Of a stretch of 64,000 nt of DNA, positions 26,951 to 33,005 are shown piece after piece. The first letter of the stretch is position 1. Every line of letters begins with the position of its first letter. The position numbers and the translations under genes were made by a program. Source of the stretch: Halopiger aswanensis (lineage in GTDB: Archaea; Halobacteriota; Halobacteria; Halobacteriales; Natrialbaceae); assembly GCF_003610195.1 (NCBI RefSeq), contig NZ_RAPO01000004.1, positions 186,001 to 250,000 on the forward strand, read 5' to 3'. The notes beneath the pieces are model-generated. The model saw only the letters and a program-made list of their open reading frames with translations. It did no database searches and was not told where the DNA came from.

Positions 26951-28081
26951 TCACTCGAGCGGCTCGGCGTCGGGGAACTGATAGCTCCCATCGAGAATCT
27001 CCTCGCGCGGACCGTAGAGCCGGACCACGTAGAACCACTCCGCTGGCGTGTAGAGGAAGTTCGGTTCATCGGGGTCACCGCCGAAATGGATCGTGACACT
27101 CCCGTCATCGTTCGGCTCTGCAGTCACGTTGTTGAACGAGTACGCGTCGTACTCGTTCTCCTCGAGAAACCCGTCGCTGTTGTAGACGGTGACCGACCAG
27201 AATCCGTCGACGGGGACGTCCTGGACGGTGAACGTGTGTGGCGTGTCACCGTCGTTCTGGTCGGGAATCCGTTGCAAATAGATCGTTTCTGGCTCCGGAA
27301 CGCCGCCCGGTGTCACACTACCGAGCAAGTACTTCACGGGGTTGACCTCCCCGACGTCGCCAATCGCGCCGCTGAAGTCCTCCATCGTTTTCATGACGGT
27401 GACGAGCGCGTCGAAGAGTTCGTCGTGTGCTTGACGATCCCAGTTGGGAATCTCGAACGCGCCGGCTGAGTTCTGTCTCACTGCGAGTTCGTCCTGTAAT
27501 TCATTGACAGTTGCTACGTCGTCCGGATCGTTCGGGTCGACGAACGTGCGGACGATGACCCACACGTACCGCGTCCCGACCCCGTCCTGGGTCAACGTGT
27601 ACTCGCCGGAATCCTGGTACGCCTCTTTCACGTACGCGTCCTCATCCATGACAACCATCGACTGGTGACGATCACCGGTGTCCGGCTTGGTAATGGTGAC
27701 CGGCTCGGTCAAGTCGAAGACGCCGATCGAATAGATCGTGTCGCGATTGGGCAAGGCCGCGATCCGCACCTCGGGGCCGACTATCGTCGGGAAATGATAA
27801 AATTCGCCGAACCCGCCTTGTTCGACGATGTTCTCCATCATTAGATGTATCTGTGACCGTGGGAAGTTCTCCCATGTGACCGGAACTGACTCGTCAGCTG
27901 CTGACGTCTCGGTTTCAGCCTCCTGGGTGTTCGCCTCCGAGGAGTTTCGGCTGGCAGTGGCACTGCCACCACCCAGCGCGAGCATTCCGGCAAGGCCCGC
28001 CCCGCGAAGTGCGTTTCGGCGTGTTGCCCGCAGCAGTTCGGAACTCGATTCTGGCGTCGTGTGATTTGTCTCGTTGCTCAT
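26951..28081 (-). CDS. Tat-exported DUF1254/DUF1214 protein, paralog 1
   Basis: The 376-aa protein begins with a Tat signal (ATRRNALRGAGLAGMLALGGG), then an acidic linker. The DUF1254 part follows (PTIVGPEVRIAALPNRDTIYSIGVFDLTEPVTI) and the DUF1214 part at the C-terminus (VPVDGFWSVTVYNSDGFLEENEYDAYSFNN to PNFLYTPAEWFYVVRLYGP). The function of the family is not known. It is a close paralog of 31641-32777; promoter, leader and signal peptide are also copied. The start at 28081 lies 66 bases downstream of the shared ATCCCATATAATAC box. Confidence 0.85.
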   Translation of the reverse strand: MSNETNHTTPESSSELLRATRRNALRGAGLAGMLALGGGSATASRNSSEANTQEAETETSAADESVPVTWENFPRSQIHLMMENIVEQGGFGEFYHFPTIVGPEVRIAALPNRDTIYSIGVFDLTEPVTITKPDTGDRHQSMVVMDEDAYVKEAYQDSGEYTLTQDGVGTRYVWVIVRTFVDPNDPDDVATVNELQDELAVRQNSAGAFEIPNWDRQAHDELFDALVTVMKTMEDFSGAIGDVGEVNPVKYLLGSVTPGGVPEPETIYLQRIPDQNDGDTPHTFTVQDVPVDGFWSVTVYNSDGFLEENEYDAYSFNNVTAEPNDDGSVTIHFGGDPDEPNFLYTPAEWFYVVRLYGPREEILDGSYQFPDAEPLE

Positions 28082-28320
28082 GGCTCATGCCTCTCTGAGT
28101 GGCCCACAGCAGCAGTTGTTACCGACTCACGCGCTCGTACTCCAGTATCCCATATAATACAGTGACGATACTCGAGAAGGGTTTCATGACATGATGACCG
28201 TAATAGATAGCTGACCATATCTGAATTCTTGATCAGCTCTCTGTACCTGTAGTGAGCGATCATACAGATCAACTCGTGCTGCATTTGCGCGCTGTAGTCA
28301 GCACGGTCGCTACGATCTGC
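27950..28320 (-). repeat. Promoter/leader/Tat-signal cassette, copy A
   Basis: This region covers the signal-peptide codons of the DUF1254 gene, its 5' leader, the TATA region (ATCCCATATAATACAGTGAC at 28147 onward) and about 150 bases upstream. It aligns with copy C (32650-33005) over nearly its full length and with copy B (29895-30175) up to about 30170. Confidence 0.8.
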
Positions 28321-28460
28321 CATCGATTGAGGGCTTCAACAAGGCCGTTCCGTTGTGTTCGGCCTGGCGTTGGAGTTTCGTCGCTTCAGTATCCCCGCCC
28401 ACGGAACCCAGCCCCGCCGTGTCCTTGTGCTCCTGACGGCGCCGCTTCTCGCGTGCCCCG
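28226..28460. other. Region between copy A and the photolyase gene
   Basis: About 235 bases. The minus strand at 28310-28460 has a protein-like tail frame (GGDTEATKLQRQAEHNG ... KPSIDG) without a start. It could be the end of a lost gene, possibly a transposase, but I cannot prove this. Confidence 0.25.
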
Positions 28461-30038
28461 TCAGCCGTCGCCGCGCGCGGCCTCGAACGCCCCGATTGCG
28501 CGATCGCGGTACTCGCCGAGCTCGACGATGGGAGCGGGGTAGTCGGGCGCAATAGCGGCGCGTGTCTCGTCGTCCAGCGTGGGCCACTCGTGGATAGCGT
28601 CGGTCGGTGCATCCCGGAGTTCGGGGACGTGTTCCCTGACGTACTCGCCGTCTGGGTCGTACTCCTCGGCCTGTGTTGTGGGGTCGAGGACGCGGAAATC
28701 CGGCTGGGCGTTCGCTCCCGTCGAGGCGGCCCACTGCCAGCCGCCGGCGGCGTGGGCGGTGTCGTGGTCCACGAGCTTTCGGCGATACCAGTCGTACCCC
28801 TCGCGCCAGTCTATCAGCAGATCCTTCGTGAGGAACGAGGCGGCCACCATCCGGACGCGATTGTGAACCCACGCCTCGGCGCGCAACTGCCGCATCCCGG
28901 CGTCGACGAGCGGATATCCCGTCTCGCCGTCCTTCCACGCCCGAAGTCCCTCGGGATCGTCGCGCCACCGGATTTCGTCCGGGTACTCGCGGTAGTTCTC
29001 GGTAACGACGTCGGGACGCGCGTCGAGGACGTGCGCGTAGAACTCCCGCCAGGCGAGCCGTCGCCGGAACGCCTCGACCGACTCCCGGGCGTCCCCGTTG
29101 CTGGCGGCGGCTGCCGCGTCCTCGGTGGCTTGCCAGACCGTCCGGACGCCGATTGTCCCGAACTTCAGGTGCGGCGAGAGGCGCGAGGTCGACTCCCGGG
29201 CGGGGTACTCGCGGTCGTCCCCGTAGCGGTAAATCGTGTCCTCGCGGAAGTCGTCGAGTAGGTCGTAGGCGACGTCGGTGCCCGCTGGCTGCACGTCGGC
29301 TTCGGGATCGTCGAAGCCCAGGTCGGCGAGTGACGGGAGCGCGCCGGCGGTCTCGGAGGCCTCGCCGAGCCACTCCTCGTCGAGGCTGTCGCGAGGATCG
29401 ACGACGTCACCGCGAACTGGCGCGGCGACGGGGCCGGCCTTCTCCCGGTTGCGCCACTCCCGCCAGAAGTCCGAGAAGTCGGAGTGGTGGCTCCCGTCGT
29501 TCGTCGTAACCTGCTCTGGTTCGTGAAGGAGCGTGCCGCCGGACCGCTCGACGTCGACGCTGACGCCGGCGTCGGCGAGCGCCGCCGCGACCGCACGGTC
29601 GCGTTCACCCGCCAATCCGGAGTAGTCGCGGTTCCAAGTGACCGTATCGGCGTCGCAGGCCGCGGCGAGGTCGGGAAGCACCGCCCGTGGGTCGCCGCGA
29701 GCGAGGAGCAGTTCGCCGCCACGCTCGCGGTACTGCTCGCGCAACGAGTCGAGCGCATCGAGCAGGAACGCCACCACGGGCGGCGCGCCGTAGGTGAATA
29801 TCGCGGGATCGTGGACGAACACCGGGAGTAGACGATCGTCGCCCGCCAGCGCCGGGTTGTCGGTCACACGAAGGTCCCGGCGGTGCCAGTGGAGTTGCAG
29901 ACCGGAGTTTTGGCGGGCGCTGGCACTGCCCATCGCGAGCAGTCCGGCGAGGCCCGCCCCGCGAAGTGCGGTTCGGCGGGTTGCCCGCAGCGGTTGGGAG
30001 TCCGATACTGGTGTCTCGTGTTTTGTCTCCTTGCTCAT
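28461..30038 (-). CDS. Class I DNA photolyase fused to a Tat-type leader
   Basis: The 525-aa protein has residues 1-42 nearly the same as the Tat leader of the DUF1254 paralogs (ATRRTALRGAGLAGLLAMG). It then joins directly to a complete photolyase: LHWHRRDLRVTDNPAL at the antenna/Rossmann start, and in the FAD domain HNRVRMVAASFLTKDLLIDW and GANAQPDFRVLDPTTQAEEYD. Photolyases repair pyrimidine dimers in the cytoplasm, so a Tat leader is out of place. The position where the native Met would be is Leu (CTG). An in-frame ATG at 29933 (MGSASARQ) could give an almost leaderless enzyme. The start at 30038 is set by the shared cassette and 66-base spacing. Confidence 0.88.
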   Translation of the reverse strand: MSKETKHETPVSDSQPLRATRRTALRGAGLAGLLAMGSASARQNSGLQLHWHRRDLRVTDNPALAGDDRLLPVFVHDPAIFTYGAPPVVAFLLDALDSLREQYRERGGELLLARGDPRAVLPDLAAACDADTVTWNRDYSGLAGERDRAVAAALADAGVSVDVERSGGTLLHEPEQVTTNDGSHHSDFSDFWREWRNREKAGPVAAPVRGDVVDPRDSLDEEWLGEASETAGALPSLADLGFDDPEADVQPAGTDVAYDLLDDFREDTIYRYGDDREYPARESTSRLSPHLKFGTIGVRTVWQATEDAAAAASNGDARESVEAFRRRLAWREFYAHVLDARPDVVTENYREYPDEIRWRDDPEGLRAWKDGETGYPLVDAGMRQLRAEAWVHNRVRMVAASFLTKDLLIDWREGYDWYRRKLVDHDTAHAAGGWQWAASTGANAQPDFRVLDPTTQAEEYDPDGEYVREHVPELRDAPTDAIHEWPTLDDETRAAIAPDYPAPIVELGEYRDRAIGAFEAARGDG

Positions 30039-30175
30039 GGCTCGTGGCGCTCCGAGTGGCCTATAGCAGCGGTTGGGGCCGACTCACACGTTCGCACTCC
30101 TGCATCCCATATAATACAGTGACGAGGCTCGAGAAGGATTTCATGACATAGTGACAGTGTTAGAAGACGAGAGTG
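29895..30175 (-). repeat. Promoter/leader/Tat-signal cassette, copy B (before the photolyase)
   Basis: This includes the signal codons and upstream promoter of the photolyase chimera. A run of about 40 bases in the signal region (around 29937-29980) is identical to copy C. The TATA block ATCCCATATAATACAGTGAC at 30104 is at the same 66-base distance from the ATG as in copies A and C. Confidence 0.8.
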
Positions 30176-30234
30176 GATCGCCGTTCTCGGCTCACGTTCA
30201 CCCGTGGGAAACGCAGTCTCTTCCGGGTTGGTGA

Positions 30235-30525
30235 TGACGTTTAGATCGGCGCGTGCACGGATCGATTCGGTCCCGCCGACATGGTCCCGTCGTGGTGAAT
30301 TAGGGTCACCAGCCAGATGTCCTTGGGGCCGTAGCCCAGCTCCGAGAGATTGACCTCGAGGGCGTCGGGGTCCTCTCGGGGCCGACGCCGGTCAGGACGA
30401 GGCCACGTTCCGTCTTGACGGCGACGGCAGGTCGTGAACGTCCGAATTCTCCCATAGCGGGTGGTTGGCTCGGAAGGCCCAACGCGTTCGATATCGAGCC
30501 TCGGAACGGCATCGACCTACGCCTG
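30235..30525 (-). pseudogene. Relic of an MBL-fold metallohydrolase gene (frameshifted)
   Basis: On the minus strand one frame reads AVAVKTERGLVLTGVGPE. After a frameshift near 30368-30381 the next frame reads DPDALEVNLSELGYGPKDIW and LVTLIHHDG, the recognisable N-terminal part of a metallo-beta-lactamase-fold protein up to the HxHxD region (here IHHDG). The rest of the gene is missing, cut off near copy B of the cassette. It is non-functional. Confidence 0.55.
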
Positions 30526-30569
30526 CAAGTGGTTGCACTATTACCGACATCGCCGTTGATGACAATCGC

Positions 30570-31367
30570 ATGACTGGAAATGGCGTGAGCCGACGACGAA
30601 CTATACAGATCGGTGGCGGCCTCGTGGTGGTCAGCGGCGTCGGAGGTACTACGGCCGCCTCGAGCGACCACGAAACGAACGACCAGCCAACCGATACTGG
30701 CTTCCGGACTCGAGTTGCACACCTCTCACCTGACGCACCCAGCGTCGACGTCTACGTCGACGGAGAGCGGGTCCGCGAGGGCATCCCATACGGGACGGTC
30801 ACCGACTACCGCGACCTCGCACCTGGCACGTACAGGATTCAGATCGTTCCCGCCGGTGACGATCCGGCCGAAGCAGTGCTCGAGGAGACCGTCGAGGCCG
30901 GCGTGGACCCCACCCTCGACGGACTCCTCGCAGTGCTCGGCGAAGTGGCCGCCGAAAACCAGCCCCTCGAGGCGCTGTTCCTCGACGACGACAACAGCCC
31001 GGTCGATCCGGGTACCGCTCGCGTTCGCGTCGTCCACGCCTCACCCGATGCGCCTGCGGTGGACGTCGTTGCCGGTGAAAACGAGGACGCGCTGTTCGAG
31101 AACGTCGCGTTCGGTGAATCCGGCTACACCGAGGTCCCGGAGGGCGAGTATCCACTCGTCATCTATCCAACGGGTGATCGAGAGACCAGCGTCTTCGAAA
31201 TCGACGTTTCACTCGCCGGAGGAACCGTCTACTCCGCGTTCGCGATTGGCTACCTCGAGACGGAGGGGGCACCCGCCGATGAGCCGTTCGGGATCCTTCT
31301 CACGGAGGATGCCCTCCCGGACGAGAAAGACCACGAGAAGGACGAAAAAGAGAGAAAGGCTACGTGA
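30570..31367 (+). CDS. Tat-exported protein with two DUF4397 domains
   Basis: The 265-aa protein has a signal with SRRRTIQIGGGLVVVSG. Two related beta-rich repeats follow, marked by RVAHLSPDAPSVDVYVDG (first) and RVRVVHASPDAPAVDVVAGE (second), the DUF4397 signature. The C-terminus is a charged, Lys/Glu-rich tail (DEKDHEKDEKERKAT), odd for a halophile. The function is unknown; DUF4397 proteins are extracellular and adhesin-like. The start at 30570 is set by the signal peptide. Confidence 0.82.
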   Translation: MTGNGVSRRRTIQIGGGLVVVSGVGGTTAASSDHETNDQPTDTGFRTRVAHLSPDAPSVDVYVDGERVREGIPYGTVTDYRDLAPGTYRIQIVPAGDDPAEAVLEETVEAGVDPTLDGLLAVLGEVAAENQPLEALFLDDDNSPVDPGTARVRVVHASPDAPAVDVVAGENEDALFENVAFGESGYTEVPEGEYPLVIYPTGDRETSVFEIDVSLAGGTVYSAFAIGYLETEGAPADEPFGILLTEDALPDEKDHEKDEKERKAT

Positions 31368-31640: not shown

Positions 31641-32777
31641 TCACTCGAGCGGCTCGGCCTCGGGGAACTGATAGCTCCCGTCGAGGATGGGCTCGCGCGG
31701 CTGGTAGAGCCGAACCGTGTAGTTCCATCCCGCTGGTGTATAGAGGAAGTTCGGCTTGTCTGGGTCACCACCGAAGTGAATCGTGATACTGCCGTCGTCG
31801 TTTGGCTCTGCGGTCGCGTTACTCACAGTATAGGCATCGTACTCGTTCTCCTCGAAGTAGAAGTCGCTGTTGTAGACGCTGATCGACCAGAACCCGTCGA
31901 CGGGGACGTCCTCGACGGTAAGTGTGTGTGGCGTCGTGCCGTCATTCTGGGCGGGAGTCCGTTGAAGAACGAACGCTTCTGATGGGTTCGGAACGCCGGT
32001 CCACCCTGCCGTACTGGCGATGAAATGCTTCACTGGGTCGACCTCATCGACGTCGCCATACGCGCCCGAGTAGTCGTCAAATGTGAGTCCAACCGTTACG
32101 AGCGCGTCGGTGAGTTGTTCGTGTGATCGCAGATCCCAGTTGGGTATCTCGAACGTGCCAGCCGACGATTGCTCCGCGTCGGTCTCGTCTTGGAGTTGCC
32201 GGGCTTGTTCCAGATCGTCTGGATCGGTCGGGTCGACGAACGCACGAATCACGACGCCAGCATACCGGGTGCCGACGAGCTCTTGGGTTATCGTGTACTC
32301 GCCGGGGTCGGTGGCGAACATCTTCACGTACTGGTCCTCGTTCTGGACGTTCATCGACCGGTATCGGTCACCGCTGTTTGGGAGCGTGATGGTGACCGGC
32401 TCGGTCAGATCGAAGACACCGAACGAGGCGAGCACGTCCCGGTCCTCCCCGATAGCAACCTGCTCTTCGATGGGAGAGACATTTCTGCGATGGTAGAACT
32501 GTCCGAACCCGCCAGCGTCGACGATTGACTGGAACACGACATGACAGTTGGCGCGCGGGTAGTTCTCCCACGTTACTGGGACTGTCTCGTCACTTTCTAA
32601 CGGCTCGTTCTGGTCCTCTAAGGCGTTAGGCCTCGGGGGATCCGTCTGGGCAGTGGCACTGCCACCACCCAGCGCGAGCAGTCCGGCGAGGCCCGCCCCG
32701 CGAAGTGCGGTTCGCCGGGTTGCTTGAAGCGGTTTGGAGTCCGGTTCTGGCGTCGTGTGGTGTGTTTCGTTGCTCAT
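31641..32777 (-). CDS. Tat-exported DUF1254/DUF1214 protein, paralog 2
   Basis: The 378-aa protein follows paralog 1 (26951-28081) throughout: Tat signal ATRRTALRGAGLAGLLALGGG, ESDETVPVTWENYPR, IGEDRDVLASFGVFDLTEPVTI, VPVDGFWSISVYNSDFYFEENEYDAY and PNFLYTPAGWNYTVRLYQP. The mature parts have diverged clearly while the signal and promoter stayed close, which suggests gene conversion or selection on the leader. The function is unknown. Confidence 0.85.
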   Translation of the reverse strand: MSNETHHTTPEPDSKPLQATRRTALRGAGLAGLLALGGGSATAQTDPPRPNALEDQNEPLESDETVPVTWENYPRANCHVVFQSIVDAGGFGQFYHRRNVSPIEEQVAIGEDRDVLASFGVFDLTEPVTITLPNSGDRYRSMNVQNEDQYVKMFATDPGEYTITQELVGTRYAGVVIRAFVDPTDPDDLEQARQLQDETDAEQSSAGTFEIPNWDLRSHEQLTDALVTVGLTFDDYSGAYGDVDEVDPVKHFIASTAGWTGVPNPSEAFVLQRTPAQNDGTTPHTLTVEDVPVDGFWSISVYNSDFYFEENEYDAYTVSNATAEPNDDGSITIHFGGDPDKPNFLYTPAGWNYTVRLYQPREPILDGSYQFPEAEPLE

Positions 32778-33005
32778 GGCTCATGCCACTCTGAGTGGCC
32801 CACAGCAGCGATTAGGACCGACTCAGACGTTCACACTCCTGCATCCCATATAATACAGTGACGAGATTCGAGAACAATTTCACGGCACGATGATAGTGGT
32901 AGATGGATAAACATCTCTGAGTTCTCGATTGTCTATCTGTACGTATAGTGGGCGATCACGGGCCGTAGTTCGTGCCCCATTCGCGCCTCCTATTCAGCAC
33001 GGCTC
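32650..33005 (-). repeat. Promoter/leader/Tat-signal cassette, copy C
   Basis: Same block as copies A and B, with the TATA block at 32843, again 66 bases from the ATG. The homology with copy A continues upstream to about 33005 (TTCAGCACGG end). In this copy the leader has a perfect hairpin GCCACT-CTG-AGTGGC just before the start codon; copies A and B have mismatches there. Confidence 0.8.

What the first reader, a model, noticed from the sequence alone, without database searches (positions are those of the whole stretch)
27950..30175. DNA photolyase expressed from a copied Tat-signal cassette
Seen: promoter, 5' leader and 42 N-terminal residues of the photolyase gene are nearly the same as those of two neighbouring Tat-exported DUF1254 genes, with an identical run of about 40 bases in the signal region. 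The native start Met is replaced by Leu (CTG) exactly at the junction. Known: class I photolyases are cytoplasmic DNA repair enzymes. Inference: a cassette recombination created a chimera that either exports a photolyase, leaves a non-cleaved leader on a cytoplasmic enzyme, or is rescued by internal initiation at the ATG at 29933.
Basis: partly seen in the sequence, partly recalled or inferred. Interest (0 to 1): 0.85.

Follow-up and report, generated by a model that had tools for sequence, protein, structure and literature searches.

The report
Photolyase-like flavoprotein with conserved export signal
In at least 14 haloarchaeal species, a protein related to the light-driven DNA-repair enzyme photolyase carries a conserved tag for export out of the cell and has lost key repair residues, so it has probably been recruited for a new light or flavin job at the cell surface.

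Summary
The photolyase gene (28461-30038, minus) shares promoter, 5' leader and about 41 codons with both neighbouring DUF1254 genes, including a 42-base identical run. The interpretation changes. This is not a local accident: all 14 close orthologs (86-92% identical) among 125 family genomes carry the leader, and the next homologs (at most about 67%) lack it. The leader upstream of the proposed internal ATG is under protein-level selection (codons 18-35: dN/dS 0.18; twin Arg and A-x-A kept), while the old start codon has drifted to six different codons. The leadered proteins form one clade with a long stem. It has changed photolyase residues that are fixed elsewhere: the flavin-N5 residue (Asp to Ala, 14/14 vs 0/81), the lesion-contact Gln to Arg, and the antenna-binding Arg to Val. 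Most genomes keep an ordinary leaderless copy. A published strain with these same substitutions lacks photoreactivation; its authors read this as loss of function. Selection, fixation, recent spread across genera and the conserved leader fit a repurposed, Tat-exported photolyase-family flavoprotein better. RefSeq trims the leader off in the one record checked. Export, cofactor state and function are untested.

The parts
28461..30038 (-). photolyase-family gene with N-terminal Tat-type leader, 525 aa
   Evidence: ORF; Pfam PF03441 E 2.6e-74, PF00875 E 1.1e-36; closest solved structure 1owl/1owm
29901..30038 (-). leader, codons 1-46: MSKETKHETPVSDSQPLRATRRTALRGAGLAGLLAMGSASARQNSG
   Evidence: Present in all 14 orthologs without indels, plus N. 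longum; twin Arg 14/14
29973..29978 (-). twin-arginine codons (residues 21-22) of the Tat-type motif TRRTAL
   Evidence: invariant in 14/14 photolyase orthologs
29916..29924 (-). A-S-A (residues 39-41), predicted signal peptidase site before Arg42
   Evidence: Ala-Ser-Ala in 13/14, Thr-Ser-Ala in 1; cleavage itself inferred
   Evidence: ATG in 14/14, but codons 18-35 upstream of it are under protein-level selection
29898..29900 (-). junction codon 47 (CTG), the former photolyase start position
   Evidence: not kept as a start: CTG2 GTG6 ATG2 ATA2 GTA1 GCG1 in orthologs
30107..30114 (-). TATA-like element TTATATGG of the shared promoter, about 70 nt upstream of the ATG
   Evidence: TTATATG conserved in all 14 orthologs and in both DUF1254 cassettes; promoter role inferred
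29934..29975 (-). 42-base run identical to the upstream DUF1254 gene
29775..29777 (-). Val88, at the position of the 8-HDF antenna-binding Arg (S. elongatus R50/51)
   Evidence: V 14/14 leadered, R 81/81 leaderless
29058..29060 (-). Arg327, at the lesion-contact position (E. coli E274)
   Evidence: R 13/14 leadered, Q 81/81 leaderless
28749..28754 (-). His429-Ala430, at the flavin-N5 position (E. coli A377-N378)
   Evidence: HA 14/14 leadered; N or S then D (80/81) leaderless
26951..28081 (-). DUF1254/DUF1214 Tat-leader gene A with the same cassette (cassette 27953-28252)
31641..32777 (-). DUF1254/DUF1214 Tat-leader gene B with the same cassette (cassette 32649-32948)

Best explanation
A photolyase related to those of Haladaptataceae was joined once to the promoter plus Tat signal of a DUF1254 gene (inferred from the tree and the cassette's distribution). 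The product diverged strongly and then spread horizontally through Natrialbaceae, partly on megaplasmids (supported by synonymous divergence). Today it is made from the upstream ATG (supported by the selection pattern). It most likely folds with FAD in the cytoplasm, is exported by Tat, and is cut after A-S-A (inferred). Its photolyase fold and Trp triad are kept, but the flavin-N5, lesion and antenna residues are changed, so it is probably not a CPD repair enzyme. The likeliest role is a cell-surface, light-responsive or redox-active flavoprotein, expressed together with the exported DUF1254 proteins (inference; no substrate is known).
For: All 14 orthologs among 125 family genomes carry the leader; similarity then falls to 61% or less within the family (67% outside), all without leader. 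Leader codons 18-35: differences at codon positions 1/2/3 are 0.053/0.040/0.214, dN/dS 0.18 against 0.255 in the body; 12 of 19 variable columns at position 3, P=0.007. Old start codon not kept. One clade, SH-aLRT 100, stem 0.33, sister a Haladaptataceae protein. 17 of 164 columns conserved in leaderless proteins are changed, against 0-8 (median 2) in any single leaderless protein. D378A, Q274R, R49V fixed or nearly so. Body dN/dS 0.23-0.25, within the leaderless range. In the same genome pairs dS is 0.21 for the leadered gene and 0.79 for the leaderless paralog, lower in 66 of 66. 12 of 14 genomes hold another photolyase. TatC present; Tat is the main export route in haloarchaea and carries folded cofactor proteins (PMC2910488). 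Haloterrigena salifodinae BOL5-1, with the same R50V/E282R/384H/385A set, shows little or no photoreactivation (PMC10052015).
Against: No export, cleavage, FAD content or activity was measured and no trained signal-peptide predictor was available. Lesion-clamp Trp (W277, W384), most DNA-contact Arg and the Trp triad are kept, so DNA binding or residual repair is possible. G087 and G105 have no other PF03441 protein, but 30 of 125 family genomes have no photolyase hit at all. Selection on the leader could be partly borrowed by cassette exchange with DUF1254 genes: upstream 150 nt are nearly as close to DUF cassettes (0.693) as to other photolyase ones (0.714), although leaders are closer to each other (0.845 vs 0.789). 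The link to missing photoreactivation in BOL5-1 is a correlation in one strain.
Confidence: 0.62

Rival explanations
1. Exported but still a DNA photolyase: it repairs UV lesions in DNA outside the membrane (incoming or extracellular DNA).
For: Photolyase fold, Trp triad, W277, W384, N341, R342 and most DNA-contact Arg are conserved; leader conserved.
Against: Lesion-contact residue is Arg in 13/14, N5 residue is Ala in 14/14, acidic residues (K194E, Y190D) near the DNA-contact loop; a strain with the same set lacks photoreactivation (PMC10052015).
Confidence: 0.12
2. Cytoplasmic enzyme: the leader is not used for export (uncleaved or inefficient), or translation starts mainly at Met36.
For: Met36 is ATG in 14/14 although most DUF1254 leaders have Leu there; the N. 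luteum RefSeq protein is annotated from codon 47.
Against: Codons 18-35 show protein-level selection with twin Arg invariant; the conserved TATA-like element lies upstream of the full ORF, and the stretch before Met36 is GC-rich without an obvious TATA; the RefSeq start is automatic annotation.
Confidence: 0.17
3. Decaying, non-functional photolyase in species that no longer need repair (close to the reading of Nag et al. 2023 for BOL5-1).
For: Loss of repair residues and poor photoreactivation in BOL5-1 (PMC10052015).
Against: 14/14 intact ORFs, the same substitutions fixed across 7 genera, body dN/dS 0.23-0.25, recent spread between genera, another photolyase kept in 12/14.
Confidence: 0.06
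4. Exact scheme of the first reader: a local, recent cassette recombination in this genome.
For: Cassette identity to neighbours; mixed affinities of the upstream part.
Against: Leader in every ortholog of the clade.
Confidence: 0.02

Closest known systems
Haloarchaeal Phr2-type, 8-HDF class I CPD photolyase (S. elongatus 1OWL, Halobacterium Phr2)
   Same: Fold (Foldseek best hits 1owm/1owl), FAD pocket frame, Trp triad, W277/W384, about 52-67% identity to haloarchaeal members
   Different: 46-residue Tat-type leader; N5 residue Ala, lesion residue Arg, antenna Arg replaced by Val; separate clade
Photolyase variant of Haloterrigena salifodinae BOL5-1 (Nag et al. 2023, PMC10052015)
   Same: Same substitutions R50V, E282R, 384H, 385A, so very probably a member of this clade
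   Different: Reported as a defective Phr2 in one strain; leader, clade, selection and spread not described in the text read
Cryptochromes (plant Asp, insect Cys at the N5 position)
   Same: Photolyase fold with changed N5 residue and altered repair residues, Trp chain kept
   Different: N5 residue is Ala, no C-terminal extension, predicted to be exported
Haloarchaeal Tat substrates, here the DUF1254/DUF1214 proteins and a HAD hydrolase with the same cassette
   Same: Promoter, n-region, twin Arg, hydrophobic stretch, A-x-A
   Different: Unrelated mature domain

Membership tests
Class I CPD photolyase, 8-HDF type | photolyase and FAD_binding_7 domains and fold | tested here: met
   Pfam PF00875, PF03441; 1owl TM-score 0.81/0.90
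Class I CPD photolyase, 8-HDF type | NCBIfam TIGR03556 above curated cut-off | tested here: not met
   406 bits, cut-off 884.6; ordinary haloarchaeal proteins were not scanned, so weak evidence
Class I CPD photolyase, 8-HDF type | Trp triad W306/W359/W382 | tested here: met
   14/14
Class I CPD photolyase, 8-HDF type | Glu (or Gln) at lesion-contact position 274 | tested here: not met
   Arg in 13/14 incl. window; Gln in 81/81 leaderless
Class I CPD photolyase, 8-HDF type | Asn/Asp at flavin N5 (378) | tested here: not met
   Ala 14/14
Class I CPD photolyase, 8-HDF type | Arg that binds 8-HDF | tested here: not met
   Val 14/14, Arg 81/81 leaderless (role of Arg51: PMC9178010)
Class I CPD photolyase, 8-HDF type | light-driven CPD repair | not testable with these tools
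   needs purified protein
Tat substrate | twin Arg followed by a hydrophobic residue, in the first 35 residues | tested here: met
   T-R21-R22-T-A-L25; RR 14/14
Tat substrate | uncharged, moderately hydrophobic stretch and A-x-A | tested here: met
   GAGLAGLLAMGSASA, 15 uncharged residues, mean Kyte-Doolittle 1.27
Tat substrate | actual Tat-dependent export and cleavage | not testable with these tools
   TatC homologs present in genome; TatFind/SignalP not available
Cryptochrome | light-dependent signalling without repair | not testable with these tools
   only sequence changes known
Cryptochrome | Asp (plant) or Cys (insect) at the flavin N5 position | tested here: not met
   Ala 14/14

The most novel reading that the evidence does not exclude
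A Tat-exported photolyase/cryptochrome-family flavoprotein that works outside the cytoplasm as a light sensor or photo-oxidase, a cellular location not known to me for this superfamily, created by capture of a promoter-plus-signal cassette that also sits on unrelated exported proteins.
Probability: 0.5. Interest if true: 0.88.

Novelty: new variant of a known kind. Interest (0 to 1): 0.74.

Why it matters
Photolyases and cryptochromes are treated as intracellular proteins that act on DNA or on signalling partners. A conserved clade with an export signal and an altered flavin site would put blue-light flavin chemistry on the outside of the cell, and would recast a published 'defective photolyase' as a repurposed one. 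At least one RefSeq record starts after the leader, which helps explain why it went unnoticed. It also shows a promoter-plus-signal-peptide cassette shared among unrelated genes (DUF1254, HAD hydrolase, photolyase) in haloarchaea.

Tried and rejected
Local recent recombination: rejected, all orthologs have the leader. Pseudogene or decay: rejected by intact frames and dN/dS. Disordered FAD loop as a clade feature: AlphaFold gave pLDDT below 50 at 427-449, but the leaderless sister L011 run with the same alignment shows the same weak loop at 377-398, so this is not evidence. Leaders on other haloarchaeal photolyases: a Tat-like pattern search upstream of about 81 leaderless proteins gave only one unconvincing hit, L033. 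Cys depletion as an export mark: 1.2 vs 2.35 Cys per protein, suggestive only. Literature on exported photolyases: one unrelated paper; on DUF1254 function: nothing useful in titles or abstracts.

Full report
Check of the observation. The gene at 28461-30038 (minus strand) encodes 525 residues with both photolyase domains. Its 5' region, from about 30209 to 29910, is a copy of the 5' regions of the two flanking DUF1254/DUF1214 genes. In the whole 4.87 Mb genome the cassette matches only these three places, with E values near 1e-70.

How widespread. A scan of genome contigs returned five proteins of 85-90% identity that match from residue 1, and the remaining listed loci at 67% identity or less without the leader (a few tblastn matches that begin before residue 40 were checked by eye and by pattern). 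Among 125 genomes of the family, 14 including this one hold a protein of 86-92% identity; the next best is 61%. All 14 have the leader in frame, without indels, with the twin Arg and Ala/Thr-Ser-Ala. A further copy, in Natribaculum longum, also has it, and three copies lie on megaplasmids.

The cassette itself. It occurs in 33 of 125 genomes. Downstream genes are mostly DUF1254 proteins of several subtypes, some of which keep only the first codons of the leader, plus a HAD-type hydrolase and the photolyases. Because all other haloarchaeal photolyases examined lack it, the direction DUF1254 to photolyase is inferred. In 9 of 14 genomes the photolyase still lies within about 10 kb of cassette-bearing genes (places). 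Photolyase leaders resemble each other more than DUF1254 leaders (0.845 vs 0.789), while the 150 bases upstream are mixed (0.714 vs 0.693), which suggests continuing exchange of the upstream part.

Is the leader translated? Between codons 18 and 35, upstream of the ATG at 29933, differences per codon position are 0.053, 0.040 and 0.214, and dN/dS is 0.18, below the body value of 0.255. Of 19 variable columns, 12 are third positions (P=0.007, columns treated as independent). The n-region (codons 2-17) is looser. The old start (codon 47) is now CTG, GTG, ATG, ATA, GTA or GCG. This favours translation from the upstream ATG and argues against internal initiation as the main route, although Met36 is invariant and a second product is not excluded. 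Exchange with DUF1254 leaders could add to the signal. In the Natribaculum luteum record the RefSeq protein starts at codon 47, so the leader is hidden by annotation there.

What has happened to the enzyme. In a tree of 96 proteins the leadered ones form one clade (SH-aLRT 100, stem 0.33) beside a Halomicrococcus protein, away from the ordinary Natrialbaceae photolyases ('quick' tree). Against 81 leaderless proteins the clade has fixed or nearly fixed changes: N5 position Asp to Ala (14/14, 0/81) with Asn to His before it, lesion position Gln to Arg (13/14), antenna Arg to Val (14/14), Lys to Glu at window residue 194 (14/14) and others. It departs at 17 of 164 columns that are at least 95% conserved elsewhere; any single leaderless protein departs at 0-8, median 2. 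The Trp triad, W277, W384 and N341 are kept. The role of the antenna Arg is taken from PMC9178010, and N5-proximal chemistry from PMC10940379 and general knowledge.

Selection and spread. Body dN/dS is 0.23-0.25, inside the leaderless range of 0.14-0.26. For the same 66 genome pairs, dS is 0.21 for the leadered gene and 0.79 for the leaderless paralog, lower in all 66. This points to recent horizontal spread of a working gene. Twelve of 14 genomes keep another photolyase-family protein; two (G087, G105) do not, which is not unusual for a family where 30 of 125 genomes have no hit.

Literature. Nag et al. 2023 (PMC10052015) list R50V, E282R, 384H and 385A in the photolyase of Haloterrigena salifodinae BOL5-1, a strain with little or no photoreactivation, and read it as loss of function in a subsurface organism. 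These are this clade's marks. The text I read does not mention the leader. Whether BOL5-1 also has an ordinary copy was not checked. Searches of the paper library found no report of an exported photolyase, but most subscription papers are missing from it.

Structure. AlphaFold gives the photolyase fold with an unstructured leader and best PDB matches 1owm and 1owl. The weak flavin loop is also weak in the leaderless control, so nothing is concluded from it.

Conclusion. Shown: the cassette, its conservation, the protein-level selection on the leader, the clade, the substitutions, and the low synonymous divergence. Inferred: Tat export and cleavage, FAD binding, loss of repair, horizontal spread as the cause of low dS, and a light or redox role at the cell surface. 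The statement as a whole is given 0.62; export alone I would put near 0.75 and loss of ordinary CPD repair near 0.7.

Noticed in passing
30150-30470 (minus): Just upstream of the cassette lies a fragment that matches 72 of 125 family genomes (up to 87-89% identical); it reads like the remnant of a conserved gene, perhaps MBL-fold.
   Followed up: partly
L010:5872-7551, L136:494-2176, L151:470-1927: The cassette promoter and the first codons are joined to long DUF1254 proteins (485-560 aa) after only part of the leader; some then carry a second twin-Arg motif (TRTLTRREALQRG), as if the cassette had been pasted in front of another signal.
   Followed up: partly
L132:847-1971 (minus): The same promoter and Tat leader sit on a HAD-superfamily hydrolase, a third unrelated fold.
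   Followed up: partly
L186:6139-7578 (NZ_CP095398.1): RefSeq WP_246976662.1 is annotated from codon 47, so the conserved 46-residue leader is missing from the protein record.
   Followed up: yes
30465-31367 (+): A DUF4397 protein gene lies between the photolyase and DUF1254 gene B; a relative lies next to a DUF1254 gene in N. ejinorense too (L008:6285-7124 beside 7310).
   Followed up: no
G000:C3:366579-369999: Three TatC domains, two in one 797-aa frame, lie in a row in the same genome.
   Followed up: no
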